Source of the DNA: Lepidostoma basale
Lineage: Eukaryota; Arthropoda; Insecta; Trichoptera; Lepidostomatidae
DNA length: 64,000 nt
Direction of reading: 5' to 3'
NCBI GenBank assembly: GCA_022606425.2
Contig: JAHDVF020000240.1
Coordinates: 2,294,001 to 2,358,000, forward strand
The first letter of the stretch is position 1. The number at the start of each line of letters is the position of its first letter. The translations under genes were made by a program, and so were the position numbers. The notes under the pieces are model-generated. The model was not told the origin of the DNA. It searched no databases and saw nothing but the letters and a program-made list of their open reading frames with translations. Positions 2,583 to 61,985 of this stretch are shown here, in pieces.

Positions 2583-2705
2583 TCAAAATTGTATTTTATT
2601 TTACGCGACAGCTGCGATATTATTGTAACACCTGAAGATGTCAACATAGGTTGACGAAACAGCTGTCGCGTAAAATAAAATACGATTGTGATGAAAAAAA
2701 TAAAG
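2583..2705. repeat. Family A hammerhead palindrome
   Basis: Arms TATTTTATTTTACGCGACAGC and its inverse face each other. The left arm has lost its stem II and CUGANGA parts, while the right arm keeps an intact ribozyme motif (2632-2667). Followed by the A-family tail (ACGATTGTGAT..AAATAAAG). Confidence 0.75.
2632..2667 (+). ncRNA. Hammerhead ribozyme motif, family A, core intact
   Basis: Read 5' to 3': CUGAAGA (2632-2638), one extra U, stem II GUCAAC/GUUGAC closed by a 4-nt AUAG loop, GAA, stem III ACAG/CUGU with no real loop, then C17 at 2667 as the predicted cleavage site. Every core residue is present (position 7 may be any base). Stem I (ACAC before, GCGT after) is weak, with an A-C mismatch. 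Motifs with so short a stem III usually work as dimers. Predicted from sequence only. Confidence 0.75.
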
Positions 2706-2729
2706 TTATTTAATTTAATAGTTTAAACC

Positions 2730-2860
2730 TAATGGGTTAACATTGTGGAATTCCATTATGACGAATTTTCAATGAAAATAAAACTTTTTTTTTCACTTTA
2801 AAATATGGAAAAAACAGTGTAATCCGAAAAAAAAACATGTTTTTTTTTTTCTGGTAAAGC
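2730..2860. repeat. Family F arm remnant
   Basis: Carries AACATTGTGGAATTCCATTA then TGACGAATTTTCAATG and GGAAAAAACAGTG, which are the outer arms of the E/F palindromes without a ribozyme-like centre. Confidence 0.45.
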
Positions 2861-3009
2861 TTGGGTTCAATCGAAACTATTGAGGTTGACGTATTTACTC
2901 TTCCGTAGTTAATATACAAAATGGTGTTTTTTTTAAATATGTAATAATTAAAAATTGTTTTTTCTTAAGCATTAATTTTGTAAATCATTTCCATTGTTCG
3001 TATTTGCAG

Positions 3010-3245
3010 TTTCATCGTTGATTTACTTGCTATCTCCATCCGAACCCACTGTTCTCTTGCAGCTAATCTCGGAGAGGTGCCGAGTTCGTGTGAGAGATCT
3101 GATCACGTACAGTATGGTCCAAAACTATTAGTCTAAAAAATCGTGTAATTTTCTCCGGTATAATAATTAGCGTTTGCGCAATTTGAAGCGCTTAAGTGTC
3201 CGTGCCGTACCCAAATAATGAATTCGGCGTGTGAAATTATTGTTC
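3010..3245. other. Unassigned, possibly single-copy DNA
   Basis: More balanced base composition than its surroundings and no match to any repeat family seen elsewhere in the window. A CTCTTGCAG acceptor-like site lies at about 3054 but no open frame follows it. No function can be assigned. Confidence 0.3.
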
Positions 3246-3420
3246 AAACATTTAATATACGTACTGTATTTCTAATAATAAGTCATTATTTTTAGTGTTA
3301 TTGCATTATTTTTTGTCTTAAAGATTTTCTTAAATAAAAACGCTAGTACACACATATTGGTGTAAAGTGATTTTTTAATATAAGTTTTTATAAACGTTAA
3401 ATTTGACTTCACGTTAACTT

Positions 3421-3830
3421 TTTTTATTTGTCTTTTTATTTTTTATATACTTTGTGCATATAACACTAACATTAAAAAAATAATTAAATTTCAAACATGT
3501 TTCGGACAACCAGTCCTTCTTCAGTGATACATATTATAAAGGTACATATTTAAAATGTTATAAAATTATTTACAAATATGATCAGTTTTCACAGATGTTA
3601 TAAAGATTTATAAGATATTTATAACATCTGTCAAAACTGATGATATTTGCAAACAATTTTAAAATATTTTAAATATGTATCTTTATAACGCTGAGGAAGA
3701 ACCGGTTGTCCGAAACATGTCTTATAATTAATTAGTATTTTTTTATGTTAGTGTTGTACATACAAAGTATATAAAAAATAAAATGACAAATAAAACATCT
3801 ACAACACCAAGTATGGTGAACAAAATATAA
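3421..3830. repeat. Family B hammerhead palindrome, near full length
   Basis: Arms of about 180 bp: outer TTTTTATATACTTTGTGCAT with ACACTAAC on the left is mirrored by GTGTTGTACATACAAAGTAT on the right. Inner segments ATAACATCTGTCAAAACTGA and their inverse meet near 3600. A hammerhead sits in each arm: minus strand about 3494-3527 (CUGAAGA, GGAC/GUCC, GAAAC, but cleavage triplet GUU) and plus strand 3691-3721 (complete). The right tail ends near ACAACACCAAGTATGGTGAAC. Confidence 0.75.
3691..3721 (+). ncRNA. Hammerhead ribozyme motif, family B
   Basis: CUGAGGA (3691-3697), one extra A, stem II GAAC/GUCC (one A-C mismatch relative to the GGAC of other copies), GAA, self-complementary ACAUGU stem III, C17 at 3721. 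The core is complete; the stem I partner is decayed in this copy. Confidence 0.65.
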
Positions 3831-4079
3831 ATGAAATTTATTTGATTATTTTTAATATAGTCAAAAATTTTAATTGCTTCTTATAATTTCTTAAATTACT
3901 AGATTATATTTCTATTATTAACACGCAAACGCCAATTTCAACGCCGTTATCTTTAAAGGATGAATGATATTTTTCAATGAGATGGGTTGCAAATTAAAAA
4001 AAAAATCTAAAAATACCTGGATATAAATTATAATTTTATTTTCAATTTATTCAAAATATTTGTAATAACAACAGCATAA

Positions 4080-4205
4080 ACATTTCAAAATAAATCATTT
4101 TAATATCTGTCACAACTGACCACATCTACGAATTTAAAAAAATATTTATTTGTAATATTTATATCACTGATAAAGGGCTTCGGTGTCCGAAACATTTTGG
4201 TTTTT
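4080..4205 (+). repeat. Family B remnant, single arm
   Basis: Plus-strand core at 4167-4196 reads CUGAUAA (G8 changed to A), stem II GGGC...GUCC, GAAACAUUUU. It lacks G8 and the GUC triplet, so it is presumably dead. Confidence 0.55.
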
Positions 4206-5150
4206 TTATTTATTTATTAATAACGTTGGTGCTGTTTACAAAGTTGAAAAAAAAAGACACATTGTTCAATGAATCTGCAACACAAAGCTTTGGAGAATAT
4301 ACAAGAAATACAAATAAAATGTTTAAAAATTCGTATTCGAATTGGGAACACCGTATTATATTCGGAGGGAGCGTGTATGATTGGTCGTAAAAGAATAAAG
4401 CGTAGACTGTGATTAGCTGGCGGAGAGCTCCTACAACTGTCATTATCAAACACGTTACAGGCTCGTAATAATAGTTTTTTTAACTATCGATTTATTTAAA
4501 CATTTATTTATAAAAAATACAATCATTTTTACACCGTTCCATTTTTATTATTAAATTATGTTCCAACTTATAGAATATTTATATGTATAAAGTAACATAC
4601 TCTGTTTCAGAAAAAAACACCAATTTATAATACATATTTTTTTAAGACATTTAAAACAAAATGTTTGCTATATTGGTGTTATAAGCAATTACTCTAATAA
4701 TGTGTTTGATATGATTTTAAACACTTTTATATTTTGTTTTATGCACCACTTTATTCTTTTAACGAATCAACCGGTTTCGCTCCCGCTAGAACTTTGTTAC
4801 AGAAACTTTCTAATTGCTAGTAAAAAAATGTGTACTAGTAGATATTTTGGAAGTTGTCAAAATAATATTTTAAAAATTTACTATAACTATTTATAATTTG
4901 TTTTAACCGCGCATTGAATTCTTTTCATTTTGAAGTTTAAATTAATATTGTTATAGTGTTGTTGCTAAAAAATTAAACCTTTAGATTCTCATTCATGTAC
5001 TAAACAAATTTCCATTTCATTTTTTTTTATTAAAGATATTATTAACACTGTGCGGAGTTCTTTTAATAATTTGGATGGGGAAATGTGAAAAACCAACTTT
5101 ATTTATTAAATATTTTGTGTATATAATATTTCAATATATTTTACTTTTTA
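4206..5150. other. AT-rich DNA, nothing recognised
   Basis: Only short chance frames. No repeat family from elsewhere in the window was recognised here. Confidence 0.45.
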
Positions 5151-5156
5151 GCTGAG

Positions 5157-5275: not shown

Positions 5276-5332
5276 TTTTATGATGTAGAATCTTTTTGAA
5301 ATTATTCAAAATACTACACTATTCAAAATACA

Positions 5333-5373
5333 TATCAGACATGTTTCGGACAACTAGTCCTTCTTCAGTGATA
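5333..5373 (-). ncRNA. Hammerhead ribozyme motif, family B, core intact
   Basis: Minus-strand reading: stem I UAUCA, CUGAAGA, one extra A, stem II GGAC-UAGUU-GUCC, GAA, stem III ACAUGU, GUC cleavage triplet, stem I UGAUA. Stem I is five perfect pairs. With its plus-strand partner at 5500-5540 it would let transcripts of either strand cleave. Confidence 0.8.
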
Positions 5374-5499
5374 CATATTATATTGATACATATTTAAAGT
5401 ATCATAAAATTGTTTACAAATATGATCAATTGATCTGTCAAAATTGATCATATTTGTAAACAATTTTATAATATATTAAATATGTATCTTTACAATATG

Positions 5500-5540
5500 T
5501 ATCACTGAAGAAGGACTGGTTGTCCGAAACATGTCTGATA
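5500..5540 (+). ncRNA. Hammerhead ribozyme motif, family B, core intact
   Basis: Stem I UAUCA (5500-5504), CUGAAGA (5505-5511), extra A (5512), stem II GGAC (5513-5516)/GUCC (5522-5525), GAA, stem III ACAUGU (5529-5534), C17 at 5535, stem I UGAUA (5536-5540). All invariant residues are present. This is the most canonical motif in the window together with its mirror copy. Confidence 0.82.
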
Positions 5541-5687
5541 TGTAATTTTAATAGTGTTATATATACAAAGTATATAAAATAAAGATAAAAAGAAATAAAA
5601 CATCAACAACACAAAGAATGCTGAATATAGAAGAAATTATTATTGGTTTTTAAATTTTCATAGTAGAAGTTCACTCTAACTATTTAA

Positions 5688-5805
5688 TTAAATTCTACAT
5701 AGCTTTATGATTTCAACCTGTTTCGGCAGCTTGCTGCCATCATCTGGTGATGCAATGTGCCGAAACCGGTCGAAATCATAAAACGAAATGGAATTTATCT
5801 AAATG
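5688..5805. repeat. Family C hammerhead-like palindrome
   Basis: Arms TTTATGATTTCAACCTGTTTC and GAAACCGGTCGAAATCATAAA are inverted. The minus-strand core (about 5713-5750) has stem II GGCAGC/GCUGCC and GAAAC but reads CAGAUGA, so U4 is A. The right arm keeps GCCGAAACCGGUCG, a perfect self-complementary stem III plus GUC, but lost its stem II. A related copy lies at 31740-31800. Confidence 0.65.
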
Positions 5806-9344: not shown

Positions 9345-9605
9345 TAAGGCTTTAACACTGTGGAATTCCATAATGACGAATTTTTATGAATTACAAAAAT
9401 GTATTTTCCATTTCCACAACTTTATTTTTCTCAACATGTTTCGAAGGCTTACACCTTCATCATCGGGAGAACGACATAAACTGATATAAGTTTAAATCGT
9501 TCTCTCGATGATGAAAGTGCAAGCCTCCGAACATGTCGAGAAAAATAAACTCAAAACTGGAAAAAACAGTGTTTTAATTCACAAAAATTCGTCATTTATT
9601 CCACT
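9345..9605. repeat. Family F hammerhead-like palindrome
   Basis: Outer arms CACTGTGGAATTCCATAATG (left) and AATTCGTCATTTATTCC (right), inner arms AACTTTATTTTTCTC and GAGAAAAATAAACTC. Minus-strand core 9432-9467: stem I UUCUC/GAGAA, CCGAUGA (U4 to C), stem II GAAGG/CCUUC, GAAACAUGU then U17. The plus-strand copy 9503-9540 reads UCGAUGA and CGAACAUGUC. Stems are preserved, the core is one or two changes from consensus. Confidence 0.65.
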
Positions 9606-9839
9606 TGTTATGGTATTTAAGTTCTATGCATATTTATTTTGTATATAAATGTTCTTCTAGAAAATAGTGTTTTACATAGTAAAAAAATAAAGCATTCGTG
9701 TAGTCTCTTTGTATTGTAATTAATAGTTGAAAATTTATAAAATCTTGAATCTTGAATTTTTAAGCATCCTATGATAATCTACTTTGGGAATTTATTAAAC
9801 ATTGCTTAGACCACTTTTTTAATAAAAAAATATCAAAAT

Positions 9840-9890
9840 ACACGACATGTTTCAGAAAATACCTCCTCCATCTTCAGGTGTAAAAAATAT
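9840..9890 (-). ncRNA. Hammerhead ribozyme motif, family E
   Basis: Minus reading: stem I UACAC, CUGAAGA, extra U, stem II GGAG...UUCU (with wobbles), GAA, stem III ACAUGU, GUC, stem I GUGUA. Core complete; stem I is five pairs. Only one arm of the palindrome is present in this copy. Confidence 0.65.
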
Positions 9891-11090
9891 AACCAAAACA
9901 AAACAAAGGAAGACTTATAAAAACGCATTTAAAATTCGATACAAAAATTTTAAATTACAAATTAAGTTCGACTATTTGTTATAAGTAGGTACTAACAATT
10001 TTTTTTTAATACTAAATAACATTAAATAAGAATAATACATGATGATAATATAATTTAGAAAAACACATACATTTGAAAAGAAATAATTTATATAAAAATT
10101 AATAAATAAATAAATAATTAATTTGCATTTGGTTGGGAATGGGAACTTGGGATCCTAAGATATATTGTTTTTAATTAAATTAAAATCATATTCTTGAAAC
10201 TCAAAAAAACAATTAAATCATATTGCATTGAAAAAACTAAAATGTAATAAATGCAAATAAAGTATACTAATAGTAAATAAATAAATAAAAACGCCGTAAC
10301 CTCTTTAAGTATAAAAATTATCAAATAAAAAACTATTTTCTTCACTTTTGGGTTTATTGATTCAACACGTTAAAAGGTATTAAAACTCTTATCATCGAGG
10401 AACAAAATAACCACCGGCAAAAAGTGACATATGATGACGTGTCTTGTATTTTGCCCTGTTTATAAATAATTGAGTAAAAACTTACAAATACGTAATAAAT
10501 AAGACACAGAAAATTAAATTCATTTTTAAAATCATTACAGAAATTTAATTGTGTTAATATATTTTTTTTGTAACAGATAACATATCGACACACAAGCTAT
10601 TAAAAAAATCATCTATTACATGTAATAAACCAGAACTCGTGTTAGCAGAACAACTGTATTTTATTACGTCATCGCTTATTAGTTGAGAACAACATTACTT
10701 CTATCAGTCAATCAGCGATTATGCAATGACATTAAAAAACGTACAAATCGCTGTCTCCAAAAACACCTCCAACACAATTAAGATACTCACGATAAACCCA
10801 GGCATTGGGTCAGTCACTAATCACACATTTGGTTCAATTAAATTAAAAACACGCTTTAAATTAATTACACAGATCATAAAAGAACGTTAAAAAAGCTCAT
10901 TAAACCAATTTTAAGCACAAGCTGCGAGACTTAGTAAGCTTTTAATTAACGAGAAATGGCTTAATCGCTTATGTGTCAATGAATTCGATGCGTTAAAAAT
11001 ACAACAATGTAATTATCTAGAACCTGAGTATATCGCTGAAGTATATTTAAAAATATATAATTAATCACTTTTCACTTACAGGGGGAGGAC
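9891..11090. other. AT-rich DNA without a recognised gene
   Basis: No frame above 80 codons with family signal. The segment at 10620-11000 is less repetitive (GTTGAGAACAACATT, AGCTGCGAGACTTAG) and may be single-copy noncoding sequence. Nothing further can be supported. Confidence 0.35.
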
Positions 11091-13295: not shown

Positions 13296-13313
13296 TTTTT
13301 ATATAAAATTAGA

Positions 13314-13490
13314 ATTAAACACTTTTAAAACGTTGTATAAACCACATTATTTTGAGTCAGGAGCACCAACCGGTTTCACTCTGTAACGAGATTCGTCAGG
13401 GCTATACGCAAACTGTGTTGAAAAGTTTGTGTATAGCCCTGACTCAAAATACTGTGATTTTACACAATGTTTTAAAAGTGTTTAATTATA
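13314..13490. repeat. Family G hammerhead palindrome
   Basis: Outer arms AACACTTTTAAAACGTTGT and ACAATGTTTTAAAAGTGTT are perfect inverses. TTTTGAGTCAGG/CCTGACTCAAAA and AGGGCTATAC/GTATAGCCCT form inner arms. Unlike A, B and D, only the left arm contains a ribozyme motif (13363-13402); the right arm skips it, as if the centre was deleted from one side. Confidence 0.7.
13363..13402 (-). ncRNA. Hammerhead ribozyme motif, family G
   Basis: Minus reading: CUGACGA, extra A, stem II UCUC/GAGU-like around CUC...GAG, GAA, stem III ACCGGU, then U17 (GUU cleavage triplet), stem I GGUG. GUU is cleaved poorly in studied hammerheads but is permitted by the UH rule. A sister copy with better stems is at 47109-47148. 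Confidence 0.55.
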
Positions 13491-13532
13491 TTTTAAATAT
13501 GTCAAACCATCAAGTAATAGCTTCTTTCCAAA

Positions 13533-13800
13533 CCTTTTTATATAATTAATACGAATGAAAACGTCAGTTTTCTAGAAGTTTTATTATATTTTATGGGAAT
13601 GACATGTGTCGCCCTTCAAAGGCATTATCAAATGTCATTATAATCATATCATTTGATAATGCCTTAAAAGGGCGAAACATATCATTCCCATAAAATATAA
13701 TAAAACTTCTAGAAAACTTCTAGAAAACTTTTCATTCGTATTAATTATTTAAAATGGAGTTTTACATCTCTGTTCTAGGAACAATTAATGCCCTTTTTAT
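13533..13800. repeat. Family D palindrome with target-site duplication
   Basis: Element 13542-13791 lies between 9-bp direct repeats CCTTTTTAT (13533-13541, 13792-13800). Two arms with cores: left minus strand TTGATAAT GCC...GGCGACACAUGUC (GAAAC altered to GACAC), right plus strand TTGATAATGCC...GGGCGAAACATATC. The right arm has a small direct duplication of CTTCTAGAAAA. The tail ends with a diverged GTTCTAGGAACAATTAATG. Confidence 0.7.
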
Positions 13801-15545: not shown

Positions 15546-15584
15546 TGACCAAATATATATTTTTTTATACTTAGGAAATTAAAA

Positions 15585-15975
15585 ATCACTTTGTTTAATC
15601 CATTAATTATTTTAAAAAATATTGAAAAACACTTGTACTTTAGCTTTCAAAACTAGTCCTTTAAAATATAATACTCAAGTGCTAAAAAAAGTGTTTTATT
15701 TATAACTTAATTAAAAAACACGACATGTTTCGGAGGATACCTCCATTTTCAGGCTATTTGTTATAAGTACTTATAACAAATAGCCCAGGTTAATTTTTAA
15801 ATTTGAATTATTGTATCGAATTTTAAATGCGTTTTTATTTAGTTTTTATTATTTGTTTAGTTTTTATTATATTTTTACACCTGAAGATATGGGTATTCTC
15901 CGAAACATGTCCCGTTTTTTAATATTTTTTAAATAATTAGTGGATTAAACAAAGTTATTTATAATTTCCTAAGTA
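15585..15975. repeat. Family E hammerhead palindrome
   Basis: Outer arms TCCATTAATTATTTTAAAAAA and its inverse near 15925-15950 flank inner arms ACACGACATGTTTCGGAGG and CTCCGAAACATGTCCCG. The minus-strand core 15721-15755 has a perfect stem II GGAGG/CCUCC but reads CUGAAAA (G8 lost). The plus-strand core is complete. The right flank carries CTATGGAATTCCACAGTG, the word shared with family F. Confidence 0.7.
15881..15911 (+). ncRNA. Hammerhead ribozyme motif, family E
   Basis: CUGAAGA (15881-15887), extra U, a weak stem II (GGGUAUUCUCC region), GAA, stem III ACAUGU, C17 at 15911. Core residues complete, stem II impaired relative to the mirror arm. Confidence 0.55.
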
Positions 15976-16059
15976 TATTACTATGGAATTCCACAGTGTT
16001 AATACCTTAGCGTTCAATAAATATTTATTTTTTATATTTGAGGAATTGGAAATATCGAA

Positions 16060-19294: not shown

Positions 19295-19435
19295 AATTAA
19301 TTTATTTGAGTTTGTCGGGACAGCTGTTTCGCCCATCTATGTTGGCATCATCATGTTTTACAAACAACTAACAAAACCTGACTGACAAACAAAAGGGTTG
19401 GCGAAACAGCTGTCACAACGAACATTATAAATTTA
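19295..19435. repeat. Family A palindrome
   Basis: Arms around GGGACAGCTGTTTCGCC and GGCGAAACAGCTGTCAC. The minus-strand core (19318-19360) has GAAAC and ACAGCUGUC but reads AUGAUGA (C3 to A). The right arm lacks the CUGANGA box. Confidence 0.6.
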
Positions 19436-19499
19436 TTTAGATATGAAAAAATAGTGTTTCAAAATTATGTATGTTATAAGTAAATAATGTTTATTGACA

Positions 19500-19988: not shown

Positions 19989-20160
19989 TATCTCTAAGAG
20001 TTTATTTTGCTAGACATGTTTCGAAGGCTTACACCTTTATCATCGGGATAACGATATAAAAATAAAGTCAAAAGTGGAAAAAACAGTGTTTTAATGAATA
20101 AAAAGTCATCTTTATGGAATTCTAAAGTTTTGACGCCTTAAATTTGTGTAAAATTTTTTA
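19989..20160. repeat. Family F unit
   Basis: Minus-strand core 20018-20062: CCGAUGA (U4 to C), stem II AAGG/CCUU, GAAACAUGUC with a GUC triplet. Right arm AAAGTGGAAAAAACAGTG and TATGGAATTCTAAAG. Confidence 0.55.
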
Positions 20161-21499: not shown

Positions 21500-21645
21500 T
21501 TAATTGGTAGTTTGACGTATTAAAAGTTTGACATTTAAGTAGCGCCAAACGTTTTCACTCTTTTTCCGAGCTTCCTCAGGGGTATACACAAACAAAAAAA
21601 AGTGGTATACGTATGCTAAGTGAAAAAGTGTTAAAATTTTTTTTT
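21500..21645. repeat. Family G hammerhead unit
   Basis: Minus-strand core 21543-21582: CUGAGGA, extra A, stem II GCUC...GAGU, GAAAAC (one extra A), stem III ACGUUU, then UGGCGC. The right part GTATACGTATGC ... AAAGTGTTAAAATT mirrors GGGGTATACAC and the left flank. Core complete but a one-base insertion in the GAAA box makes activity doubtful. Confidence 0.55.
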
Positions 21646-27836: not shown

Positions 27837-27984
27837 ATATTTTTGTGAATGTATACTTATACTTGTATACGAATCCTGGATTTTCACCCATGGTAGGTGG
27901 TTAATTCAAATTTGAATTAACCACCCACCATGGGTGTAAATCTAGGATTCGTATACAAGTATAAGTATACATTCACAAAAATAT
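27837..27984. repeat. 148-bp palindrome without spacer
   Basis: Two 74-bp arms meet at AATTCAAA|TTTGAATT (27910/27911) with about three mismatches. Arms contain TATACAAGTATAAGTATAC and ACCCATGG, related to the tail of repeat X (GGGTAAAATCCAGTATTCG, TATACAAG). It would extrude as a cruciform or snap back as a hairpin RNA. Confidence 0.85.
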
Positions 27985-31732: not shown

Positions 31733-31739
31733 ACTTATC

Positions 31740-31802
31740 TCTTAATTTCTACCGATTTCAGCAGCTCACTGCCATCGTCTGGACTATATAATGAAAATAG
31801 TT
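31740..31802 (-). repeat. Family C hammerhead-like remnant
   Basis: Minus reading CAGACGAUGGCAGUGAGCUG then CUGAAAUCGG: stem II GCAG/CUGC kept, U4 is A as in the 5688-5805 copy, GAAAC decayed. Confidence 0.5.
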
Positions 31803-32344: not shown

Positions 32345-32520
32345 TATTAAATTATTTTTTTCATAGTCTCTTGTTTTGGCCGAAAAACTTTGATAATTCA
32401 ACATTATTGACTGTCAAAAATTTAACACCATTATGAAATCACAATTTTTATTATTCACTTTTTGAGTATCGCGACAGCTGTCTCGCCAACCGATTTCGGC
32501 ATCATCAGGTGTTATTTTTT
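32345..32520. repeat. Family A unit with altered GAAA box
   Basis: Minus-strand core 32470-32509: CUGAUGA intact, extra U, stem II GCCGA/UUGGC around an AAAUCGG loop, but GAGAC instead of GAAAC, then AGCUGUCGCG. Left terminus TTGTTTTGGCCGAAAAACTTTG is the shared A terminal word. Confidence 0.6.
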
Positions 32521-33959: not shown

Positions 33960-34165
33960 TAACATTATTAACAGTTAATTTGGAACACTTTTTTAATATC
34001 ACAATTTATTTAATTTCTATGAAATTGTCGCGACAGCTATTTCGCTAACCAATGTTGATTGTCACACCTGATGATGCTAACATTGGTAAGCGAAACAGCC
34101 GTCGCGACAATTTCATATGAATTAAATCAATTGTGATACTATAACAGTGTTTTAATTGAACAGTT
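33960..34165. repeat. Family A palindrome with one intact ribozyme
   Basis: Arms TGAAATTGTCGCGACAGCTA and GCCGTCGCGACAATTTCA. The left arm retains stem II and GAAA but not CUGANGA; the right arm is complete (34068-34103). Confidence 0.75.
34068..34103 (+). ncRNA. Hammerhead ribozyme motif, family A, canonical core
   Basis: CUGAUGA (34068-34074), extra U, stem II GCUAAC/GUAAGC-like with an AUUG loop (one mismatch), GAA, stem III ACAG/CCGU (one mismatch), C17 at 34103. Followed by GCGACAAUUUC. Confidence 0.7.
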
Positions 34166-34179
34166 AAGAACATGTTGTA

Positions 34180-35030: not shown

Positions 35031-35154
35031 ATAAATATTTATAAAAAACGTCAATTGAACGTCTGCTAAAAATATGTAATAAATAAATAGTCAATTGTTT
35101 TGGCCGAAACACTATGATATTTAAACATTATTTACTGTTAAAAACTAAAACTTA

Positions 35155-35372
35155 ATACGAATGAAAACGTTCGTTATCTAGAAGTTTTATTATATTTTAT
35201 GAGAATGACATGTTTCGCCCTACTAAGGCAATATCAAATGTCCTAATAATGCCTAAGTAGGGCGAAACATGTCATTCCCATAAAATATAATAAAACTTCT
35301 AGAAAACTGACGTTTTCATTCGTATTAATTATTTAATATGGAGTTATACATCATTGTTCAAGAAACAATAAA
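35155..35372. repeat. Family D palindrome, well preserved
   Basis: Left TATCTAGAAGTTTTATTATA, GACATGTTTCGCCCTACTAAG; right GCCTAAGTAGGGCGAAACATG then TCATTCCC. Stem II loop changed in both arms in step (TTAGTAGG versus CTACTAAG), as expected of a palindrome homogenised between arms. Tail intact (CATCATTGTTCAAGAAACAA). Confidence 0.75.
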
Positions 35373-35619: not shown

Positions 35620-35718
35620 AATCTCTTGATGGTGACTGGTGACCAGTCTGTCGATGCCAGCGAACCTGGCAAAACCGGTCGCTATCGAAATAAAGACGAA
35701 AGTGGAAGTTGTTAAAAA
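35620..35718 (+). repeat. Family C2 hammerhead-like unit
   Basis: Core 35648-35680: CUGUCGA (A6 to U), extra U, stem II GCCAG/CUGGC with a perfect 5-bp match, AAAACCGGUC (GAAAC lost its G), then GCUAUCGAAAUAAAGACG. The same CUGUCGA occurs at 52457-52489. Confidence 0.6.
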
Positions 35719-38964: not shown

Positions 38965-39206
38965 TTTCAAGTAGAATAAATGGAGTAGAAATGAGATCTC
39001 TTAGACGAATGTGTGGATATTCTGTGTACGATAGAGTGTCGAATGAAAATATAAGAAGTGAATGCGGTGCGAATGATGGTGTCGTGAACAAAATAATGAA
39101 AGGATCATTAAGATGGTTTGGACATATGGAAAGAATGAATGAAGAAAGAATGGTAAAAAAATTATATGTTAATGATGTAAATGGTACCAGAAATAGAGGA
39201 AGAACC
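38965..39206 (+). pseudogene. RTE1 LINE internal segment, plus-strand arm of a fold-back
   Basis: SRINGVEMRSLRRMCGYS, NIRSECGANDGVVNKIMKG, SLRWFGHMERMNEERMVKK, VNDVNGTRNRGR and then an abrupt switch to the 3' end of the minus copy (ACCATCACGCCG). About 96% identical, by eye, to the inverse of 39395-39632. Confidence 0.75.
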
Positions 39207-40231
39207 ATCACGCCGTCTCCCCGAAGGGGTAGACAGAAAGAATGTACTGCCACACTTTTCTTTCCTGACATATTTCTCTCGCTTCCTCAACATTCATACA
39301 TCGTGTCATGCACGCGCGTCGTTTTCTCTGACTCCTCACATGACCGACATTCAATATTTCATTTATTTGATCGTGCCACGTTTTCCTCGGTCTTCCTCTA
39401 TTTCTGGTTCCATTTACATCATTAACATATAATTTTTTTACCATTCTTTCTTCATTCATTCTTTCAATATGTCCAAACCATCTTAATGATCCTTACATTA
39501 TTTTGTTCATGACACCATCATTCGCACCGCATTCACTTCTTATATTTTCATTCGGCACTCTATCATACACAGAGTATCCACACATTATTCTAAGAGATCT
39601 CATTTCAACTGCATTTATTCTACTTTCATCCTTCTTTTGCCAGTTCCATGCTTCGCTTCCATACATAAGGGTCGGTAGAAGAACACCATTGTGCACTGCC
39701 ATTCTAGCTTTTTTGATAGGTTTTTGTTTGCGATGACAACTTTAAGTGCACCATTCACTTTGTTGCCTGCCCCAACCCTTCTTTCAATATCCCTCTCCAC
39801 TCGCCCATCTCTTGTAAACATACTACCTAAATACACGAACTCAACTACTTGCTCCAAATTTTCACCATTCACGCTAATGTTGCAGACTGTCGTGGTTTCT
39901 TCCTTTTCAAAAATCATTACCTTGGACTTATTAACATTCATCATCAGATCATTTCGCATGCATACCTCATACATACAATTCACCAGGACTTGTAGTTCAT
40001 GCTCGTTGTCTGCAAGAAGGACAGCGTCATCCGCATACAAGAGACAGCTTACTGACACTCCGCTCATTTTGACACCTACATCCAACCTTTTCAGCTCTTT
40101 CATTCATTTGTCCATATTCAGATTAAATAACCACGGGGACATTATGCAACCCTGTTTGACACCTTTATTGATATCAAACCAGGCTGTAAGATCTCCATTT
40201 ACTCTGACACTAGCAGTGCTTTCTGTGTATA
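39207..40231 (-). pseudogene. RTE1 LINE, longest copy, including part of the RT domain
   Basis: Reading leftwards from 40231: SLYTESTASVRVNGDLTAW, FDINKGVKQGCIMSPWLFNL (RT fingers/palm GV.QGC..SP.LFN), a stop, KRLDVGVKMSGVSVSC, LLYADDAVLLADNEHEL (catalytic YADD), MYEVCMRNDLMMNVNKSKV, EFVYLGSMFTRDGR, AGNKVNGALKVVIANKNLSK, frameshift, GVLLPTLMYGSEAWNWQKK, frameshift, MNEERMVKKLYVNDVNG, GRPRKTWHDQINEILNVG, CMTRCMNVEEAREICQE, ending SVYPFGETA-stop. The protein would nick target DNA and copy LINE RNA; here it is broken at three or more places and cut at 40231 by a CR1/Jockey-type LINE. Confidence 0.85.
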
Positions 40232-43965: not shown

Positions 43966-44059
43966 ACTTAAGATGTCATTTCACGTTCAATTACTATTAT
44001 TTTTAAATTTTCATATGAAACACTCATTTTGTGGACATTTTAGTCTTATAGATACAAAA

Positions 44060-44250
44060 TAATAAAACACATTGTATTTAGCCACGGTATGGTTATTATA
44101 ATCGATGCCAACTGGTTTTACTTAGACCGAAGCTTTATCAGGGCAATATATTAACTATGTACGTTATTATAAGCTTGTGTCCAAGCGAAGCTAGTTGGCA
44201 TCAATTCTAATAACCACACCGTGCTTAAATACAAAGTATTTCAATATTTG
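44060..44250. repeat. Family G palindrome
   Basis: Outer arms TTGTATTTAGCCACGGTATG and GTGCTTAAATACAA; inner ATCGATGCCAACTGG and CTAGTTGGCATCAAT. Minus core 44106-44147 reads CUGAUAA (G8 to A), stem II GCUU...AAGU, AAAACCAGUU. The right arm keeps AGCGAAGCUAGUUGGC only. Confidence 0.6.
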
Positions 44251-47100: not shown

Positions 47101-47108
47101 TATTCTGT

Positions 47109-47148
47109 CACCCTGACGAAGCTCCGGCGGAAGCGAAACCGGTTGGTG
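47109..47148 (+). ncRNA. Hammerhead ribozyme motif, family G
   Basis: Stem I CACC, CUGACGA (47113-47119), extra A, stem II GCU.C/G.AGC with a CGGCG loop, GAA, stem III ACCGGU, U17 at 47144, stem I GGUG. Stem I has four perfect pairs. Cleavage triplet is GUU. Confidence 0.6.
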
Positions 47149-47199
47149 TTAATAACAAATAAAGTGGTTTAGATAAAAGTATTACAAGTGTACAAACAA

Positions 47200-48576: not shown

Positions 48577-50440
48577 AGTTTATCAGTTTATTTCATTTCA
48601 TCAATAGACATTACAAAATTAATTTTTAAGGCATCTATTGAGAACAGGTAAAATAATATATTGGTAAAATAATAATATACTACCAGAAACGCATGAGAGA
48701 TGGTTGAACATTAGGAAGACAGGATACCCTCCAGAATTATGAGTATTTGCCTTCTGAACGTACTTTCACTGATATGAAAGACGTCGATTTCCGAGGAGAC
48801 CGCGTTCAGCAGATTGATTGCTCTTCCCACCGGTGTCACCAGAGCCAGGTTGGTTCTAGCGGCGGATAGGTAAAACAATCTATGCTGGCGCTGTCGGAGA
48901 TATCTGTCGGGAACAAAAAGACCTACACCCTCCAGCACGGCTGAGTTTTCAAAATATCCCCTAATAAGCCTAAAGAAATGGGTTATGAGAAACCCGTCTC
49001 TTCGAAGCTGCAGAGAATTAGACCCCAACATTCCCAAAAGAAACGCTGTGGGATAGAGCCATGGATAGCTACCATACTCCTTCATGTAGAGATACCTCAG
49101 AAATTTTTTTCTGAACCCTCTCCAGCATAAGGGAATATCTCGCCTCGTGCGGACTCCATATCACAGAACCACTTTCGAGTCTGCTCCGAACCAATGAATT
49201 GTATAGTACTCTGAGCACATTGGGATCTCTGAAAACCCTTCCGGTCCGAATTATGAAGCCCAACATCTTCAGCGCAATGCCACAAATTCTCTCAACATGA
49301 GCATGAAAGGTTAATCTACTCTCATAGATGACCCCGAGATCTCTCATAGTGGATACATGTGCCAACTGCTGGTTATTCATCGTGTATCTATGATATATAG
49401 TTCTCCGTGCTCTCGTAAAAGATAACATTACGCACTTAGAGACATTGAATTTCATATGATTACTGTGACTCCAGGTAACAATATTATTAATATCCGACTG
49501 AAGGCGTAGACAGTCGTCAGGATTATTTATGTCTAGGAATAATTTCAGGTCATCGGCAAATAAAAGAAATCGCGAGAAGTTTATTACCTTCGCAATATCG
49601 TTTATGAATATAGTGAAGAGGAGTGGGCCAAGGTTCGAACCCTGTGGCACCCCTGAATAAACAAAAAAAGGTTCCGATTGAAAAATTCCGTACGAGACGA
49701 ATTGTTTCCTCCCCTCAAGGTAACTAGTGAAAAGCATAATAAGTTGAGAAGAGAAACCAATTTGAGATAGCTTTGCTATAAGAATGTCATGGTTCACAGT
49801 ATCAAATGCCTTTGAGAAGTCATTATATGAACAGTCAACTTGGTGACCATTGTCCAAGGCCCTTGTTATGTATTCTGTGAAGACCATGAGATTTGTTTCA
49901 GTAGAGCGCCCCTTCCTGAACCCATGTTGTTCTGTTATAATATATGGGTCAACTCTGGGAAATATCAATTTATGTAGAATAGATTCGAATAGCTTGGCTG
50001 GAGCCGACAGTATTGCTACAGGTCTGTAGTTTTCGACTGACTCTTTTGTTCCGCTCTTGAAGATAGGACTGATCCTAGAAACTTTCCAGAGATCAGGAAA
50101 AGTATTTGTACTTAACGATAGGTTAAATAAAAAGTACAGCGGATATATTAAGAGCTCAGAGCAGCCTTTAAAGAAGAAGATGGGAAGAAAATCCGGACCA
50201 ACCGAGTGCGAATTCTTCATTGCTTTGATGGATGATTTAATATCATTTGTGTCTATGTTAGATATGTCAAAGCTATGAGCGCACTTACTGGTATTTGAAC
50301 CGGTCGCTGAATTTAAATTAAGCCGCGGGGGAATATTGCTATAGACAGATTGAAAGTGCTTAGCGAATGCGTTCGCTATGTTTGCGCCCTCAACCTCTCT
50401 ATCCCCATGCATCATGGTATTTAGGATGCCACCGTCCTTA
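48577..50440 (-). pseudogene. CR1/Jockey-group LINE, 5'-truncated, one frameshift
   Basis: Minus strand from about 50440: KDGGILNTMMHGDREVEG, SIKAMKNSHSVGPDFLPIFF, NYRPVAILSAPAKLFESIL, TEQHGFRKGRSTETN, NDFSKAFDTVNHDIL, SGVPQGSNLGPLLF, LLFADDLKLFLDI, DLGVIYESRLTFHAH, VLYNSLVRSRLESG, LERVQKK. A one-base change in a run of seven As near 49100 shifts the frame to YGSYPWLYPTAFLLGMLG ... EGILSS-stop (49085-48711). All RT boxes are present, but the endonuclease is missing. The 3' UTR ends in a short (ATAAACTG)n tail at 48577-48600, like the octamer-type tails of CR1 elements. A triple GTCCTTAC repeat marks the 5' truncation point. Confidence 0.85.
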
Positions 50441-50464
50441 CGTCCTTACGTCCTTATGTTAAGA

Positions 50465-50645: not shown

Positions 50646-50844
50646 CTTGTTTTATTAGGGCAAAAAACGCAAATATTTATTTAATAATATTTTAAACTCT
50701 TCTTAATAAATTAAAAAGAAAAAAACATTAAAATGTAAGTTAATTTACAACACGAGCAAAAAATAATATAACTTTATTTATATTTGCCATCATTTTGTGT
50801 TATGGAATCAAATTTGAAAAATATTGGGTTCTACAAAACTCTTT

Positions 50845-51000
50845 TGCATTTTCACAAATATGTTTCGGACCGCAGACGTCTTTCCTCAGTGTAAAAATCT
50901 TAACAAGTGTTCAACAATTGTAGTTGTAATTTTAACACTAAAGAAGGACGTCTGAATTCCGAAAGATATTTTTGAAAATTACAAGGAAGTATTGTAAAAT
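50845..51000. repeat. Family H hammerhead palindrome
   Basis: Arms CTTTTGCATTTTCACAAATA and TATTTTTGAAAATTACAAGG. Minus core 50862-50890: CUGAGGA, extra A, stem II GACGUC...GGUCC-like, GAAACAUAUUU (no GUC). Plus core about 50940-50973: CUAAAGA, AGGACGUCUGAAUUCC, GAAAGAUAUUU. Spacer ACAATTGTAGTTGT. Confidence 0.6.
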
Positions 51001-51114
51001 ACAATCTTTTTAAAATGATATAAAAATAAAAATAATCAGTTTAAATTCGAGTGGAATTTCTTAAGATTGATTTTTTGTGATTTTATAATTAAACTAATTT
51101 CATAATTTTTAATA

Positions 51115-52435: not shown

Positions 52436-52505
52436 TATCGTCTTTATTTCGACAGGGATCGGTTTCGCCAGGTTTGCTGGCATCGACAGACTGATGACAC
52501 TATTG
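52436..52505 (-). repeat. Family C2 hammerhead-like unit
   Basis: Minus core 52457-52489: CUGUCGA (A6 to U), extra U, stem II GCCAG...CUGGC (five pairs), GAAACCGAUC. GAAA is intact here. Flanks CGAAAUAAAGACGAUAGUGG match 35690-35710. Confidence 0.6.
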
Positions 52506-53773: not shown

Positions 53774-54057
53774 AAAGTTTTATTATATCATATAATTAAT
53801 ATAAATGAAAACGTCTGTCTTCTAGGAGTTTTATTAAATTTTATATGCAATGACATGTTTCGCCCTTCTATGGCATTATCAAATGTCATCAATATATAAA
53901 TATAAAATATCAAATCAAACATTTGATAATGCCTTAGAATGGCGAAACATGTCATTCCATATAAAATTTAATAAAACCCATAGAACACAGAAGTTTTCAT
54001 TTGTATTATTTATTTAATACGGAGTTTTACATCATTGGTAAAAAAAAAGTTTTATTA
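53774..54057. repeat. Family D palindrome with 12-bp target-site duplication
   Basis: Element 53786-54045 lies between AAAGTTTTATTA copies (53774-53785, 54046-54057). Left core minus strand, right core plus strand, both UUGAUAAUGCC...GGCGAAACAUGUC. Spacer CATCAATATATAAATATAAA. Tail GGAGTTTTACATCATTGG, shortened. Confidence 0.75.
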
Positions 54058-55914: not shown

Positions 55915-56180
55915 TCAATAGTCTATTGTTTTGACCGAATGATACCATAAAGTCCATTGTTTTGGCCGAAACACTATGATACTTTAACATTATAAACTGT
56001 TAAATTAAAAAAAAAATGTTTTTTTGTTTCACAATTGTATTTTATTTTACGCGACAGCTGTTTCGTCAACCTACGTTGACATCATCAGGTGTTACAATAA
56101 AGGAAAGGTTGACAAAACAGCTGTCGCGTAAAATAAAATACAATTGTGATACATAAAACAAAGTTTTTTTTAATTTAACA
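55915..56180. repeat. Family A palindrome, best ribozyme
   Basis: Terminal words TCTATTGTTTTGACCGAATG and CCATTGTTTTGGCCGAAAC (duplicated), then arms TTTTATTTTACGCGACAGC and GCTGTCGCGTAAAATAAAA. The minus ribozyme (56053-56088) is intact. The right arm keeps GGUUGACAAAACAGCUGUC without CUGANGA. Confidence 0.75.
56053..56088 (-). ncRNA. Hammerhead ribozyme motif, family A, canonical
   Basis: Minus reading: CUGAUGA (56088-56082), extra U, stem II GUCAAC-GUAG-GUUGAC (six perfect pairs), GAA, stem III ACAG/CUGU, C17 at 56053. All conserved residues match the classic consensus, including U7. Stem I is weak (CAC with GCG). Confidence 0.8.
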
Positions 56181-56345
56181 GTTTATGATAATATATTTAT
56201 ATGTATATAAGGTTCGAATCATGAAAATTTAACAGTTGATATATTATTATAATACCTGATGATCTCAACTTAGATTGATGAAGCAGCTGTCGCGAAAAAT
56301 AAAAATAAAATTGTGATACATAAAAACAAAGTTTTATAATTTAAC
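56181..56345 (+). repeat. Family A unit, plus arm
   Basis: Core 56256-56291: CUGAUGA, extra U, stem II CUCAAC/AUUGAU with mismatches, GAAGC (A15.1 to G), AGCUGUC. Tail AAAATTGTGATACATAAAAA then CAAAG. Confidence 0.6.
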
Positions 56346-57169: not shown

Positions 57170-57790
57170 AAGGACCGTATTTTGTGGACGATAAGACGCA
57201 TCGGACCATACGACGCATGCCAACATTGATCTATCAATTTTGAAAAAAAAATGTTCTGGACGATAATACACATCGGACCATAAGACGCATCTGAAAATTG
57301 ATCTATAAATTCTTGGAAAAAAATATGTTTTAGACCATAAGACACATCGAACCATAAGACGCATCTATTGATCTATTAATTTTTGGAAAAAAAATATGTT
57401 TTGGACGATAAGACACATCGGACCATAAGACGCATCTGAAAATTGATCTATCAATTTTTGGAAAAAAAATATGTTTTGGACGATAAAACAAATCGGACCA
57501 TAAGACGCATCCCAAAATTTATCTTTAAATTTTGGAAAAAATATGTTTTGGACGATAGTACACATCGGACCATAAAACGCATCCCAAAATCGATTAATCA
57601 ATTTTGGAAAAAAATATGTTTTGGACAATAATACACTTCGGACCATAAGACGCACCTGAAAATTGATCCATCAATTTTTGGGAAAAAATTGTTTTGGACG
57701 AAAAGACACATCGGACCATAAGACGCATCTGAAAATTGATCTATTAATTTTTGGAAAAAAAAATTGTTTTGTACGATAAGACACATCTGT
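57170..57790. repeat. 73-bp minisatellite, about eight units
   Basis: TCGGACCATAAGACGCAT starts units at about 57201, 57273, 57347, 57418, 57493, 57565, 57638 and 57711, a spacing of 72-74 bp. Each unit holds ATTGATCTATCAATTTTTGG (with GATCTATCAAT partly palindromic) and TTTTGGACGATAAGACACAT. The last word is a diverged copy of the unit start, so the unit itself is a dimer of about 36 bp. Short overlapping minus-strand frames are by-products. Confidence 0.9.
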
Positions 57791-57992: not shown

Positions 57993-58014
57993 AAAAAACG
58001 TTCCACTATCAAAT

Positions 58015-58955: not shown

Positions 58956-59009
58956 TATTGCTTTTAATAGAAATTTATCGGTAGAAATTCATTATAAATT
59001 AATTAAATA

Positions 59010-59078: not shown

Positions 59079-59079
59079 A

Positions 59080-60165: not shown

Positions 60166-60255
60166 ATTAATTAGATATTTAAAATCTAAATATATAAAAT
60201 AAAATGGACACTTTGTGTATTAACCACGGTTTTTTTTATTATATTTGACGCCAAC

Positions 60256-60635
60256 TATGATAGTTTCATTTTTCTTTTTCTTTTTTATTTACTTTGTATA
60301 TACAACACTAACTTTAAAAAAAACATAATTAAATATCTGACATGTTTCGGATAACCGGTCCTTCCTCAGTTATATTATAAAGATACATATTTAAAATTTT
60401 ATAAAATTGTTTAAAAATATGATCATTTGATAGATGTTATATCAAACAAACAAATTTATAATATTTTAAATATATATTTTTATAATATCAATGAGGAAGT
60501 ACCGGTTGTCCGAAACATGTCAGATATTTAATTATAATTTTTTAAAACTGTTGTGTTTACAAAGTATAAAAAAGAAAGACAAATAAAACATCTACAACAA
60601 AAATATGGCAAACATAGAAGAAATATGATAGTTTC
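60256..60635. repeat. Family B palindrome with 12-bp target-site duplication
   Basis: Complete unit 60268-60623 (356 bp) between TATGATAGTTTC copies (60256-60267, 60624-60635). Left arm TTTATTTACTTTGTATATAC ... minus hammerhead 60339-60369 ... TATGATCATTTGATAGATG. Right arm with plus core 60491-60521 (AUGAGGA, C3 to A), then TGTTGTGTTTACAAAGTAT, AAAACATCTACAACA, and the end GCAAACATAGAAGAAA. It split a short G-like repeat (GACGCCAACTATGATAGTTTC). Confidence 0.85.
60339..60369 (-). ncRNA. Hammerhead ribozyme motif, family B
   Basis: Minus reading: CUGAGGA, extra A, stem II GGAC/AUCC (three of four pairs), GAA, stem III ACAUGU, C17 at 60339. Core complete. Stem I is weaker than in the 5333 and 5500 copies. 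Confidence 0.65.
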
Positions 60636-60714
60636 GCTTCTACCTATTATATATATTTGACATAAAATGTTATGTCGAATAAAAGTAAGAACAGTTTTTA
60701 AATTGTTAGTTGTT

Positions 60715-60905
60715 GTTGATAAGTCGATTCCCGGCGATGGCAGTGTGATTGTCACACTGTCTTTGGTCTGGTGTAGAATTCACGTGACAATAAAATGGCG
60801 ATAGATTGGCTACCTATCATATGTCATGTGGATCATCAATATAATAGCTAAAAATAATGTGTATACAGTAATTGGGTTTAAGCGACCTGTTGTATACAAG
60901 AAAAA
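60715..60905 (+). repeat. SINE1 copy, head-truncated
   Basis: GTCGATTCCCGGCGATGGCA (box B), GTGTGATTGTCACACTGTCT, AATTCACGTGACAATAAAAT, GTATACAGTAATTGGGTTT, GACCTGTTGTATACAAG, then an (AT)n run. Confidence 0.75.
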
Positions 60906-60984
60906 ATATATATATATATAATATATATAAATATATAGTTTATTATTTAAAATATTTTTTGACCTTATGAAGCCAATTACTAAC

Positions 60985-61465
60985 GAAACATAGAAAGAAA
61001 ATATGCAGTATTTATTAATATCTCTCATAGTGATTGGGAACAGCGTGATTACTATTAAGAAACCTGCTTCCAAGTGAGCAGTTCGGTCCATTGTGTCTGA
61101 TAGGCGCCATAATATAATAAGGAACGGATAAACGGCGGAGTCTGTGGGACACCAACAAGCGGCCTAACGAATTATTGTTGCCTGAGCATTTCGTTAATGG
61201 CAATTAACACGATTCAGGTGATGTCGGCGGCACGGTAACGCCATTGTTAAGGACAATATCGAGTGGGAAGAATGCGGACTGAAGTATTTTAATAGTAGGA
61301 CAATCATTTTAATTAATACAATAAAATTTAGAAGATATTTTTAAGTGGATTTGAAATTCTGATGATTTTTTTCAATTACGATAATGATTCGAAATAACGA
61401 AGATTGTCGATGGCAGTCAGCCTGGCTATAGTCAGCCCATCCAAATAAATAATTAATTAAGTAAA
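60985..61465. other. Unassigned, least repetitive block
   Basis: 61085-61300 is less AT-rich (GGAACGGATAAACGGCGGAG, GATGTCGGCGGCACGGTAAC) and has homeodomain-like words (TTAATGGCAATTAAC). No frame and no repeat match. Candidate conserved noncoding element, unproven. A C2-like scrap (TTGTCGATGGCAGTCAGCC) sits at 61406-61424. Confidence 0.3.
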
Positions 61466-61467
61466 AA

Positions 61468-61612
61468 CAGCGTTTATTTTTTTTTTGCAAACGCACTGTC
61501 ACTCACACTATTGCAAACAATCTCCCTGAAATGAACGAATTCTAAACGGGTATTAATATCCTTTAAGCAGAAATGTGATAATATAGAATTACGAGTATAT
61601 ACAAATGGTAAT
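61468..61612. repeat. Direct repeat, left copy
   Basis: TTTGCAAACGCACTGTCACT, GGAAACAATCT-like, ACGGGTATTAATATCCTTT, GCAGAAATGTGATAATATAG correspond to the right copy at 62085-62232. The two are about 620 bp apart. Confidence 0.7.
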
Positions 61613-61644
61613 GGTAGCAGCAAAACTCGAGTTCTATAAAACAC

Positions 61645-61748
61645 AACATCTCAAAGAACTTCACTAGTTTAAAAGTCGAGAAAGAATACATTATAAATTG
61701 CTGGACAGTCTTCAAAGCGCTACATGGAATAAAGCTACAATATTCAGT
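61645..61748 (+). pseudogene. L2/Rex1-type LINE scrap
   Basis: CAACATCTCAAAGAACTTCA, then LKS-like, GAATACATTATAAATTGCTG, GGACAGTCTTCAAAGCGCTA, CATGGAATAA: QHLKELH...RIHYKLLDSLQSATWN in two frames, matching 43480-43965 closely at base level. Confidence 0.7.
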
Positions 61749-61749
61749 T

Positions 61750-61985
61750 ATTTTATTACATCTGTCAAAACTGATCATATTTGTTAACAATTGTATAATA
61801 TTTTATATACGAGTATGTATCTTTATAACATCACTGAGGAAGGACCGGTTGTTCGAAACATATCGGATATGTAATTTTTTTTTTAAAAGTAAGTGTTGTA
61901 TATACAAAGTATCTAAAAAGAAAAAAGCTATTATAATAAAACATCTATAACACAAAGTATGGCGAACATAGAATAATTTTTTTTT
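61750..61985 (+). repeat. Family B unit, right arm only
   Basis: TACATCTGTCAAAACTGATC, then core 61834-61864: CUGAGGA, extra A, GGAC/GUUC, GAAACAUAUC (GUC changed to AUC), stem I UCA/GGAU weak. Tail TACAAAGTATCTAAAAAG and AAAACATCTATAACAC ... GGCGAACATAGAA. Confidence 0.65.

What the first reader, a model, noticed from the sequence alone, without database searches (positions are those of the whole stretch)
2583..61985. A field of hammerhead ribozyme motifs in at least seven families
About 25 sites show the hammerhead arrangement CUGANGA - stem II - GAAA - tiny stem III - GUC/GUU, and ten have the whole core. Families A, B, C/C2, D, E/F, G and H differ in stem sequences but keep the same spacing. 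Known carriers of short-stem-III hammerheads are Penelope-like elements, retrozymes and some animal satellites. Several unrelated-looking families side by side in one short window, with no Penelope-type protein visible, is unusual.
Basis: partly seen in the sequence, partly recalled or inferred. Interest (0 to 1): 0.92.

Follow-up and report, generated by a model that had tools for sequence, protein, structure and literature searches.

The report
Mirror-image Penelope retrotransposon ribozyme scars
This stretch of an insect-like genome holds many short mirror-image pairs of hammerhead-type ribozyme sequences; two of the families match the terminal repeats of Penelope-like retrotransposons in the same genome, the others are likely of the same kind, and the pairs were likely made when the element's enzyme copied the front end of its RNA onto both sides of one DNA cut.

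Summary
In detail: a hammerhead-type core with covarying stem II recurs in about nine families (my grouping), far beyond chance (17 sequence-only matches against 0.7 in shuffles; stem II 88% paired), although Rfam's models detect none. One core pattern occurs 10,524 times in the 769-Mb assembly, another 5,974 times. Window families K and D match the terminal repeats of two GIY-YIG Penelope-like elements (PLEs) in that assembly. PLE-1 is inserted the same way: head-to-head dimers, a 12-13-nt target duplication in 8 of 8 informative cases, and a 41-nt 'tail' on exactly one arm in 9 of 9. One B subfamily has a sharp 5' edge 15 nt before the core. I infer that the short palindromes are 'strong-stop' PLE insertions: both strands of one staggered break prime cDNA of the RNA's 5' end. 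Head-to-head PLEs with a tail on one repeat are already in print (PMC3846280). New here are the strong-stop reading, the scale, and a mobile lineage whose core is mutated. Ribozyme activity is untested.

The parts
1106..1294 (.). T-family head-to-head palindrome (core UUGAUAA)
   Evidence: tail marker on right arm, plus a more distant 2-mismatch match on the left
2551..2727 (.). B-family palindrome; motif 2620-2679 (+), left arm cut within the motif
3422..3795 (.). A-family palindrome; motifs 3482-3536 (-) and 3679-3733 (+)
4155..4209 (+). further model hit, A-like sequence
   Evidence: E 0.00028, read
5316..5557 (.). A-family palindrome; motifs 5326-5380 (-) and 5493-5547 (+), stem I of 9-10 bp, best-looking copies
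   Evidence: predicted fold shows both helices
5682..5804 (.). H-family palindrome; motif 5703-5758 (-), core CAGAUGA; other arm lacks the CUGANGA box
9421..9549 (.). J-family palindrome; motifs 9421-9478 (-) and 9493-9549 (+), core CCGAUGA
9775..9968 (-). D-family copy; motif 9832-9889
   Evidence: 89% identical over 195 nt to the repeat downstream of a PLE-2 GIY-YIG fragment in L026
12360..12607 (.). T-family palindrome
   Evidence: tail marker on left arm only
13300..13499 (.). G-family palindrome; motif 13356-13411 (-), right arm ends before the motif
13533..13757 (.). T-family palindrome
   Evidence: tail marker on right arm only
15566..15977 (.). D-family palindrome; motifs 15710-15764 (-) and 15869-15923 (+)
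   Evidence: 77-87% identical to repeats downstream of PLE-2 fragments at 9 of 9 loci
19295..19437 (.). B-family palindrome; motif 19307-19366 (-)
20001..20058 (-). J-like motif
   Evidence: E 6.4e-5, read
21535..21591 (-). G-like motif
31738..31793 (-). H-like motif, core CAGACGA
32461..32520 (-). B motif, no second arm seen
33961..34176 (.). B/C-family palindrome; motif 34056-34115 (+), left arm cut in stem II; a further copy at 34277-34336 (+)
35146..35335 (.). T-family palindrome
   Evidence: tail marker on right arm only
35636..35692 (+). K motif, the family of PLE-1
   Evidence: same core as downstream of the 758-aa PLE ORF
44057..44249 (.). G-family palindrome; motif 44098-44153 (-)
47101..47156 (+). 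G motif with 4-bp stem I CACC/GGTG
50812..51016 (.). E-family palindrome; motifs 50845-50901 (-) and 50926-50982 (+)
52445..52501 (-). K motif, the family of PLE-1
53774..54057 (.). T-family palindrome 53786-54019 with a 12-nt flanking repeat AAAGTTTTATTA at 53774 and 54046
   Evidence: tail marker on right arm only
55989..56303 (.). B-family palindrome 55989-56189 (motif 56041-56100 on -, right arm cut in stem II) and a further B copy 56244-56303 (+)
60256..60635 (.). A-family palindrome; motifs 60327-60381 (-) and 60479-60533 (+), 12-nt flanking repeat TATGATAGTTTC at 60256 and 60624
61822..61876 (+). A motif, no second arm seen

Best explanation
The motifs are minimal hammerhead-type sequences in short head-to-head palindromes that are, for two families by direct match and for the rest likely, front-end fragments of Penelope-like retrotransposons, likely inserted when both strands of one staggered DNA break primed reverse transcription of the element's RNA. 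Inferred mechanism: PLE RNA starts a short way upstream of the hammerhead; the PLE protein cuts the target with a 12-13-nt stagger; each 3' end primes reverse transcription at one of two adjacent internal sites just before and just after an ATG that I take to be the start of the ORF, one arm at each site; on an ordinary mRNA the polymerase would run off at the RNA's 5' end (a strong-stop product), and the two antisense cDNAs would be joined 5'-to-5', sometimes with filler. On read-through or tandem RNA the same start would copy back into the ORF and give long head-to-head PLE copies. Shown here: motifs and covariation, the palindromic order, the match of families K and D to PLE loci, target duplications and the one-tail rule in PLE-1, the sharp 5' edge in one B subfamily. 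Inferred: dual priming, run-off at the transcription start, PLE origin of the other families. Untested: ribozyme cleavage; in PLE-1 it appears dispensable for movement.
For: K and D motifs lie downstream of GIY-YIG/RVT_1 coding sequence. PLE-1 dimers: tail on exactly one arm in 9 of 9; 12-13-nt duplication in 8 of 8 informative, best of 72 cross pairs 8 nt. GIY-YIG list: all 5 close pairs diverge. Two-armed B dimers: tail marker on one arm in 13 of 18, both in 1, neither in 4; T palindromes in the window: near one arm in 5 of 5, with a second distant match in one. Neighbour orientation 10 of 12 (B) and 12 of 13 (K) head-to-head. Agreement among 22 GCC/GCT-type B sites falls from 0.73-0.95 at -15..-12 to 0.32-0.55 upstream. 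Published: a PLE protein cuts and extends both strands and starts at two internal sites (PMC11167929, parts 1-2 of 4 read).
Against: The same paper saw no difference in start site between strands in vitro. The 15 GTC-type B sites have no sharp edge; A and D units reach about 110 nt upstream of the motif. Four of 18 B dimers show no tail and one shows two. Window flank repeats are weak: 12 nt or more in 3 of 18 palindromes against 8 of 266 cross pairs. Several K dimers share a 43-nt gap, so some dimers may spread as units. No autonomous partner was found for A, B, E, G, H, J, T. No RNA start site was measured.
Confidence: 0.65

Rival explanations
1. Self-priming: one PLE strand folds back and is copied into its own mirror image, as proposed for rotifer Penelope elements with an antisense template; no second initiation at the target is needed.
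For: Published proposal based on palindromes at the inverted junction (PMC3846280, passages). In the two dimers compared without crossing the centre the arms are nearly identical: 1 substitution in 1,430 columns (L031) and 2 in 453 (L030). Some B seams have no filler (L060).
Against: A copied arm should end where its template ends, yet one PLE-1 arm lacks the 41-nt tail in 9 of 9; several B seams contain unrelated filler. Near-identity of arms is also expected if both came from one source RNA.
Confidence: 0.2
2. The short palindromes are independent non-autonomous elements (a SINE-like or retrozyme-like family) that replicate as palindromes and borrow PLE enzymes, not by-products of PLE mRNA.
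For: Very high copy numbers of short forms; no autonomous B partner found; a recurrent 43-nt gap among K dimers.
Against: K and D short forms share motif and outer ends with coding PLEs; B seams vary in length and sequence.
Confidence: 0.25
3. The conserved box is mainly a promoter or protein-binding site and not a ribozyme.
For: Rfam scores none; the box lies close to the inferred transcription start; PLE-1 is mobile although position 6 is U in 98 and C in 2 of 100 listed copies; only 4 of 11 predicted minimum-energy folds show both helices.
Against: Stem II changes compensate across families and within B; minimal hammerheads in PLEs are published, and one was seen to cleave when its protein was present (PMC11167929).
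Confidence: 0.12
4. DNA transposons of the MITE type with hammerhead-like terminal inverted repeats.
For: Short palindromes without ORF and with flanking duplications.
Against: The two arms end at different places, and K and D match PLE repeats.
Confidence: 0.03

Closest known systems
GIY-YIG Penelope elements of the rotifer Adineta vaga (PMC3846280, passages read)
   Different: There few copies, no hammerhead mentioned in the text, junctions read as self-priming on an antisense template; here duplications of 12-13 nt, thousands of motifs, and short forms limited to the repeat
Poseidon PAc of Anolis carolinensis (PMC11167929, parts 1-2 of 4 read)
   Same: GIY-YIG PLE with hammerhead at the pLTR-ORF junction, two adjacent internal start sites, both DNA strands cut and extended, catalytic mutants still insert in vitro
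   Different: Described as tandem copies; head-to-head insertion as the outcome of two-strand priming and strong-stop forms are not described in the parts I read; no strand difference in start site there
Minimal type I hammerheads of PLEs and Terminons (reviewed in PMC7761336 and PMC6155905, passages read; the primary papers are not held)
   Same: Minimal cores with tiny or no helix III, thousands of dispersed copies in non-coding DNA, some in pLTRs
   Different: The role of these motifs is called a mystery there; here many copies are placed as arms of head-to-head insertions. Whether published PLE motifs have the extra nucleotide before stem II I could not check
Animal retrozymes (PMC7229834, passages read)
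   Same: Short, AT-rich, non-coding, type I hammerhead
   Different: Retrozymes are head-to-tail tandem repeats giving circular RNA; here neighbours are mostly head-to-head

Membership tests
Penelope-like element (PLE) | RT plus GIY-YIG coding sequence in the same element | tested here: met
   Met for families K (758-aa ORF with RVT_1 and GIY-YIG) and D (nine loci); not found for the others, and none in the window itself
Penelope-like element (PLE) | pLTR with hammerhead motif, inverted or direct repeats, optional tail | tested here: met
   PLE-1: inverted repeats with tail on one arm in 9 of 9 dimers
Penelope-like element (PLE) | Target site duplication | tested here: met
   PLE-1 8 of 8 informative; B 9 nt or more in 7 of 13 against 6 of 156 cross pairs; window set weak
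Hammerhead ribozyme (minimal type I) | Core CUGANGA..GAAA..UH with helices I and II | tested here: met
   Met in families A, B, D, G with one extra nucleotide before stem II; core substituted in K, T, H, J
Hammerhead ribozyme (minimal type I) | Recognised by Rfam models | tested here: not met
Hammerhead ribozyme (minimal type I) | Self-cleavage | not testable with these tools
   needs in vitro transcription
Animal retrozyme | Head-to-tail tandem repeats of about 170-400 nt | tested here: not met
   close neighbours head-to-head 10 of 12 (B), 12 of 13 (K); 3 same-strand neighbours in these lists
MITE / TIR DNA transposon | Both terminal repeats end at the same place | tested here: not met
   one-tail rule; transposase not searched for

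The most novel reading that the evidence does not exclude
PLEs insert by two-sided priming: two reverse transcriptases start on opposite strands of one 12-13-nt staggered break, one at each of two adjacent sites beside the start codon. When they copy an ordinary mRNA they run off at its 5' end and leave ribozyme-bearing strong-stop palindromes by the thousand. This would be the source of the dispersed minimal hammerheads of animal genomes, and ribozyme catalysis would not be needed for it, as one highly copied lineage with a mutated core suggests.
Probability: 0.5. Interest if true: 0.8.

Novelty: new variant of a known kind. Interest (0 to 1): 0.62.

Why it matters
Minimal hammerheads dispersed by the thousand in animal non-coding DNA are described as having an unknown role (PMC7761336, passages), and the steps of Penelope integration are not settled (PMC11167929). 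A genome with thousands of short insertions that have readable ends, flanking duplications and seams turns both into countable questions: are two start sites used once each per insertion, does the centre equal the RNA's 5' end, and do lineages with mutated ribozymes spread as well as others?

Tried and rejected
Rfam finds no hammerhead; its microRNA-family matches at E<=10 (down to 1e-10) all lie below their gathering scores and fall mostly on long foldbacks. A first descriptor that allowed no extra nucleotide found 1 spurious site. In one search the printed totals (21 head-to-head, 3 tail-to-tail, 17 tandem) allow 3 mismatches, and the 3-mismatch tandem hits are mostly the palindromic word overlapping itself; at 2 mismatches or fewer I count 19 of 33 sites head-to-head, 0 tail-to-tail and one tandem pair (L008). 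In one search the comparisons of L015, L016 and L034-L037 ran across the dimer centre and are not used. Window flank repeats were weak as a set. The genome-wide count of K copies with A at position 6 was asked and not answered; I have 0 of 100 listed rows and none among the K-type rows. A direct-repeat control pattern did not complete. Sampling: L029-L038 were picked from the GIY-YIG list for long ORFs, close pairs or top score and are not random; L032 and L033 look bacterial. L039-L058 are nearly consecutive rows of the list; L059-L063 were picked because both arms are listed there. K-type ends in L017, L020, L021, L025, L028 and L038 were left out of the dimer count because no second recognised end lies in the fetched stretch or orientation did not pair. 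Only PLE-1 was used as a query for PLE protein in the window. A transposase search was not made. Papers: PMC11167929 parts 1-2 of 4; PMC3846280, PMC7229834, PMC6155905, PMC7761336, PMC4918200, PMC5718144 and PMC12910113 passages only; three wanted papers are not held. The paper searches listed no title or abstract opening that describes short head-to-head hammerhead insertions; most of those papers I did not open.
Full report
1. The observation. With a sequence-only pattern (CTGANGA, 9-21 nt, GAAA, 2-6 nt, [GA]T[CT]) the window has 17 matches, 16 of them in recognised families; 200 dinucleotide shuffles average 0.7 with a maximum of 5. A structural descriptor finds 13 exact cores against 0.25. 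On 27 aligned sites stem II is 88% paired with changes on both sides in 3 of 4 pairs, stem I 65%, stem III 94%; the whole structure is at 77.8% against 53.3% for shuffled and 24-43% for slid partners, while the mere number of pairs with a double change (10) does not exceed the shuffles (9.4). These 27 were partly picked for pairing. In 32 B-type sites picked by sequence alone, stem II cells are 90.6% paired against a shuffled mean of 84.5% and maximum of 88.0% in 1,000 shuffles. Rfam finds no hammerhead. Twelve of 13 exact cores have one extra A or T between CUGANGA and stem II; all 32 B-type sites have T there. A viroid hammerhead with an extra core nucleotide is known to me by title only (reference in PMC6155905).

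2. The arrangement. Inverted-repeat searches place the motifs in palindromes. I aligned the arms around 22 centres; 18 of them belong to motif families A, B, D, E, G, H, J and T. In these the motif lies in one or both arms with its 5' side towards the centre; in several (for example 2.6, 13.4, 34.0 and 56.1 kb) one arm is cut within or before the motif. A palindrome at 27.8-28.0 kb has no motif. Of 18 neighbouring model hits within 200 nt (49 hits at E<=0.6), 13 diverge, 2 converge and 3 lie on the same strand; with the 37 hits at E<=0.01 it is 6, 2 and 2.

3. The genome. The window lies in a 769-Mb assembly. One B-type pattern matches 10,524 times and one K-type pattern 5,974 times, with 0 matches of the reversed patterns. 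A strict two-armed B pattern matches 688 times counting both strands, so a symmetric dimer can count twice; the control is 0. Among the first 100 listed rows, neighbours within 250 nt are head-to-head in 10 of 12 (B) and 12 of 13 (K); the other three are same-strand and none converge.

4. The link to Penelope. A GIY-YIG search gave 62 matches (150 of 541 candidates scored); the five close pairs in the list all diverge. L029 and L030 carry an element with a 758-aa ORF holding RVT_1 and GIY-YIG domains; they share one flank and are counted once. Named relatives of the ORF among the 120 listed are insect proteins; the best are from Phthorimaea and Euphydryas at 40-45% identity. About 0.4 kb beyond the ORF lies the K motif, AGTGTTACCAGT-CTGTCGA-T-GCCAGCGAGCCTGGC-GAAACCGGTC, found in the window at 35.6 and 52.4 kb. 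Nine further loci encode a second lineage, 40-50% identical in protein. Downstream of these lie D-family sequences, 77-87% identical to the window copy at 15.8-16.0 kb at 9 of 9 loci; the CUGANGA box is intact in 7 of 9.

5. How PLE copies are inserted. In the nine PLE-1 dimers with both ends recognised (L001, L015, L016, L030, L031, L034-L037), one arm ends near ...TTTAATTATTAT and the other runs through a 41-nt tail that begins with ATG and ends ...CATTTGATTA. Eight are flanked by a 12-13-nt duplication; the ninth lies in a TA repeat; the best of 72 mismatched flank pairs is 8 nt. Each dimer is thus best read as one insertion at one staggered break, with arms ending at two different but fixed places, which argues for two initiations rather than a fold-back copy. 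It fits the in vitro finding that a PLE protein cuts and extends both strands and starts at two adjacent internal sites, although no strand difference in start site was seen there (PMC11167929). A tail on one of the inverted pLTRs, and head-to-head as the most frequent order, were described in rotifers and read as self-priming (PMC3846280). That the tail's ATG starts the ORF is my inference.

6. Why the short ones are short. Among 18 two-armed B dimers the tail marker is on one arm in 13, both in 1, neither in 4; the marker also occurs in 18 of 420 arbitrary 150-nt slices, and the L046 hit may be chance. Shared flank words of 9 nt or more occur in 7 of 13 one-tail dimers and 6 of 156 cross pairs, the longest cross match being 15 nt. 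In the window's T family a tail marker lies near one arm in 5 of 5; T1 has a second, more distant match. Aligned on the core, 22 GCC/GCT-type B sites (some are two arms of one dimer) agree at 0.73-0.95 from -15 to -12 (AGTT) and only at 0.32-0.55 upstream; the 15 GTC-type sites lack this edge. Several seams have filler between arms that both begin at AGTT. In PLE-1 the arms of one short dimer meet at CCAGT, 33 nt after TATATAAAGG. I recall CAGT as an arthropod initiator; no call tests it. The simplest reading is that the arms end where the RNA begins: a strong-stop product of a polymerase that starts just inside the ORF.

7. The ribozyme's role. Families A, B, D and G keep the classical core. 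In PLE-1 position 6 is U in 98 and C in 2 of 100 listed copies, yet the lineage has left insertions with exact duplications. From general knowledge that position is essential, so cleavage appears dispensable for this lineage, as catalytic mutants were for PAc in vitro. T has UUGAUAA, in which both members of the C3-G8 pair are changed to U3-A8. Only 4 of 11 predicted minimum-energy folds show both helices. Activity of any copy is untested.

8. Verdict. A confirmed observation, better explained as front-end PLE insertions than as independent ribozyme families; a new variant of a known kind.

Noticed in passing
window 57178-57787: Tandem array of about 8 copies of a 73-nt unit (GGACCATAAGACGCATC...); no hammerhead motif noticed in it.
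   Followed up: no
window 27837-27984: Near-perfect palindrome (74-nt arms, 96%) without the motif, of unknown kind.
   Followed up: partly
window 38969-39625: Inverted pair of 235-nt LINE-derived arms, 95% complementary.
   Followed up: no
window 40517-42853 (-) and 49069-50445 (-): Long open frames with RVT_1 only, of non-LTR type by appearance, no GIY-YIG.
   Followed up: partly
window 17.6, 34.2 and 47.2 kb: A repeat beginning CCATCACGCCGT... stands just 3' of several motif copies; may be a shared insertion preference or nested insertion.
   Followed up: no
L032 (contig C102) and L033 (contig C729): Dense long ORFs around the two GIY-YIG hits of about 620 aa look bacterial by eye (uvrC-like), so the assembly probably includes bacterial contigs.
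   Followed up: no
T family, e.g. window 53840-53894: Core UUGAUAA: both members of the C3-G8 core pair changed together to U3-A8 in an amplified family.
   Followed up: partly
G000 contigs C7, C12, C13: Several K dimers share the same 43-nt gap between cores, which may mean that some palindromes spread as units.
   Followed up: no
L029 and L030: Two contigs carry the 758-aa PLE with one shared flank in opposite orientation; a duplicate or haplotype contig is likely.
   Followed up: partly
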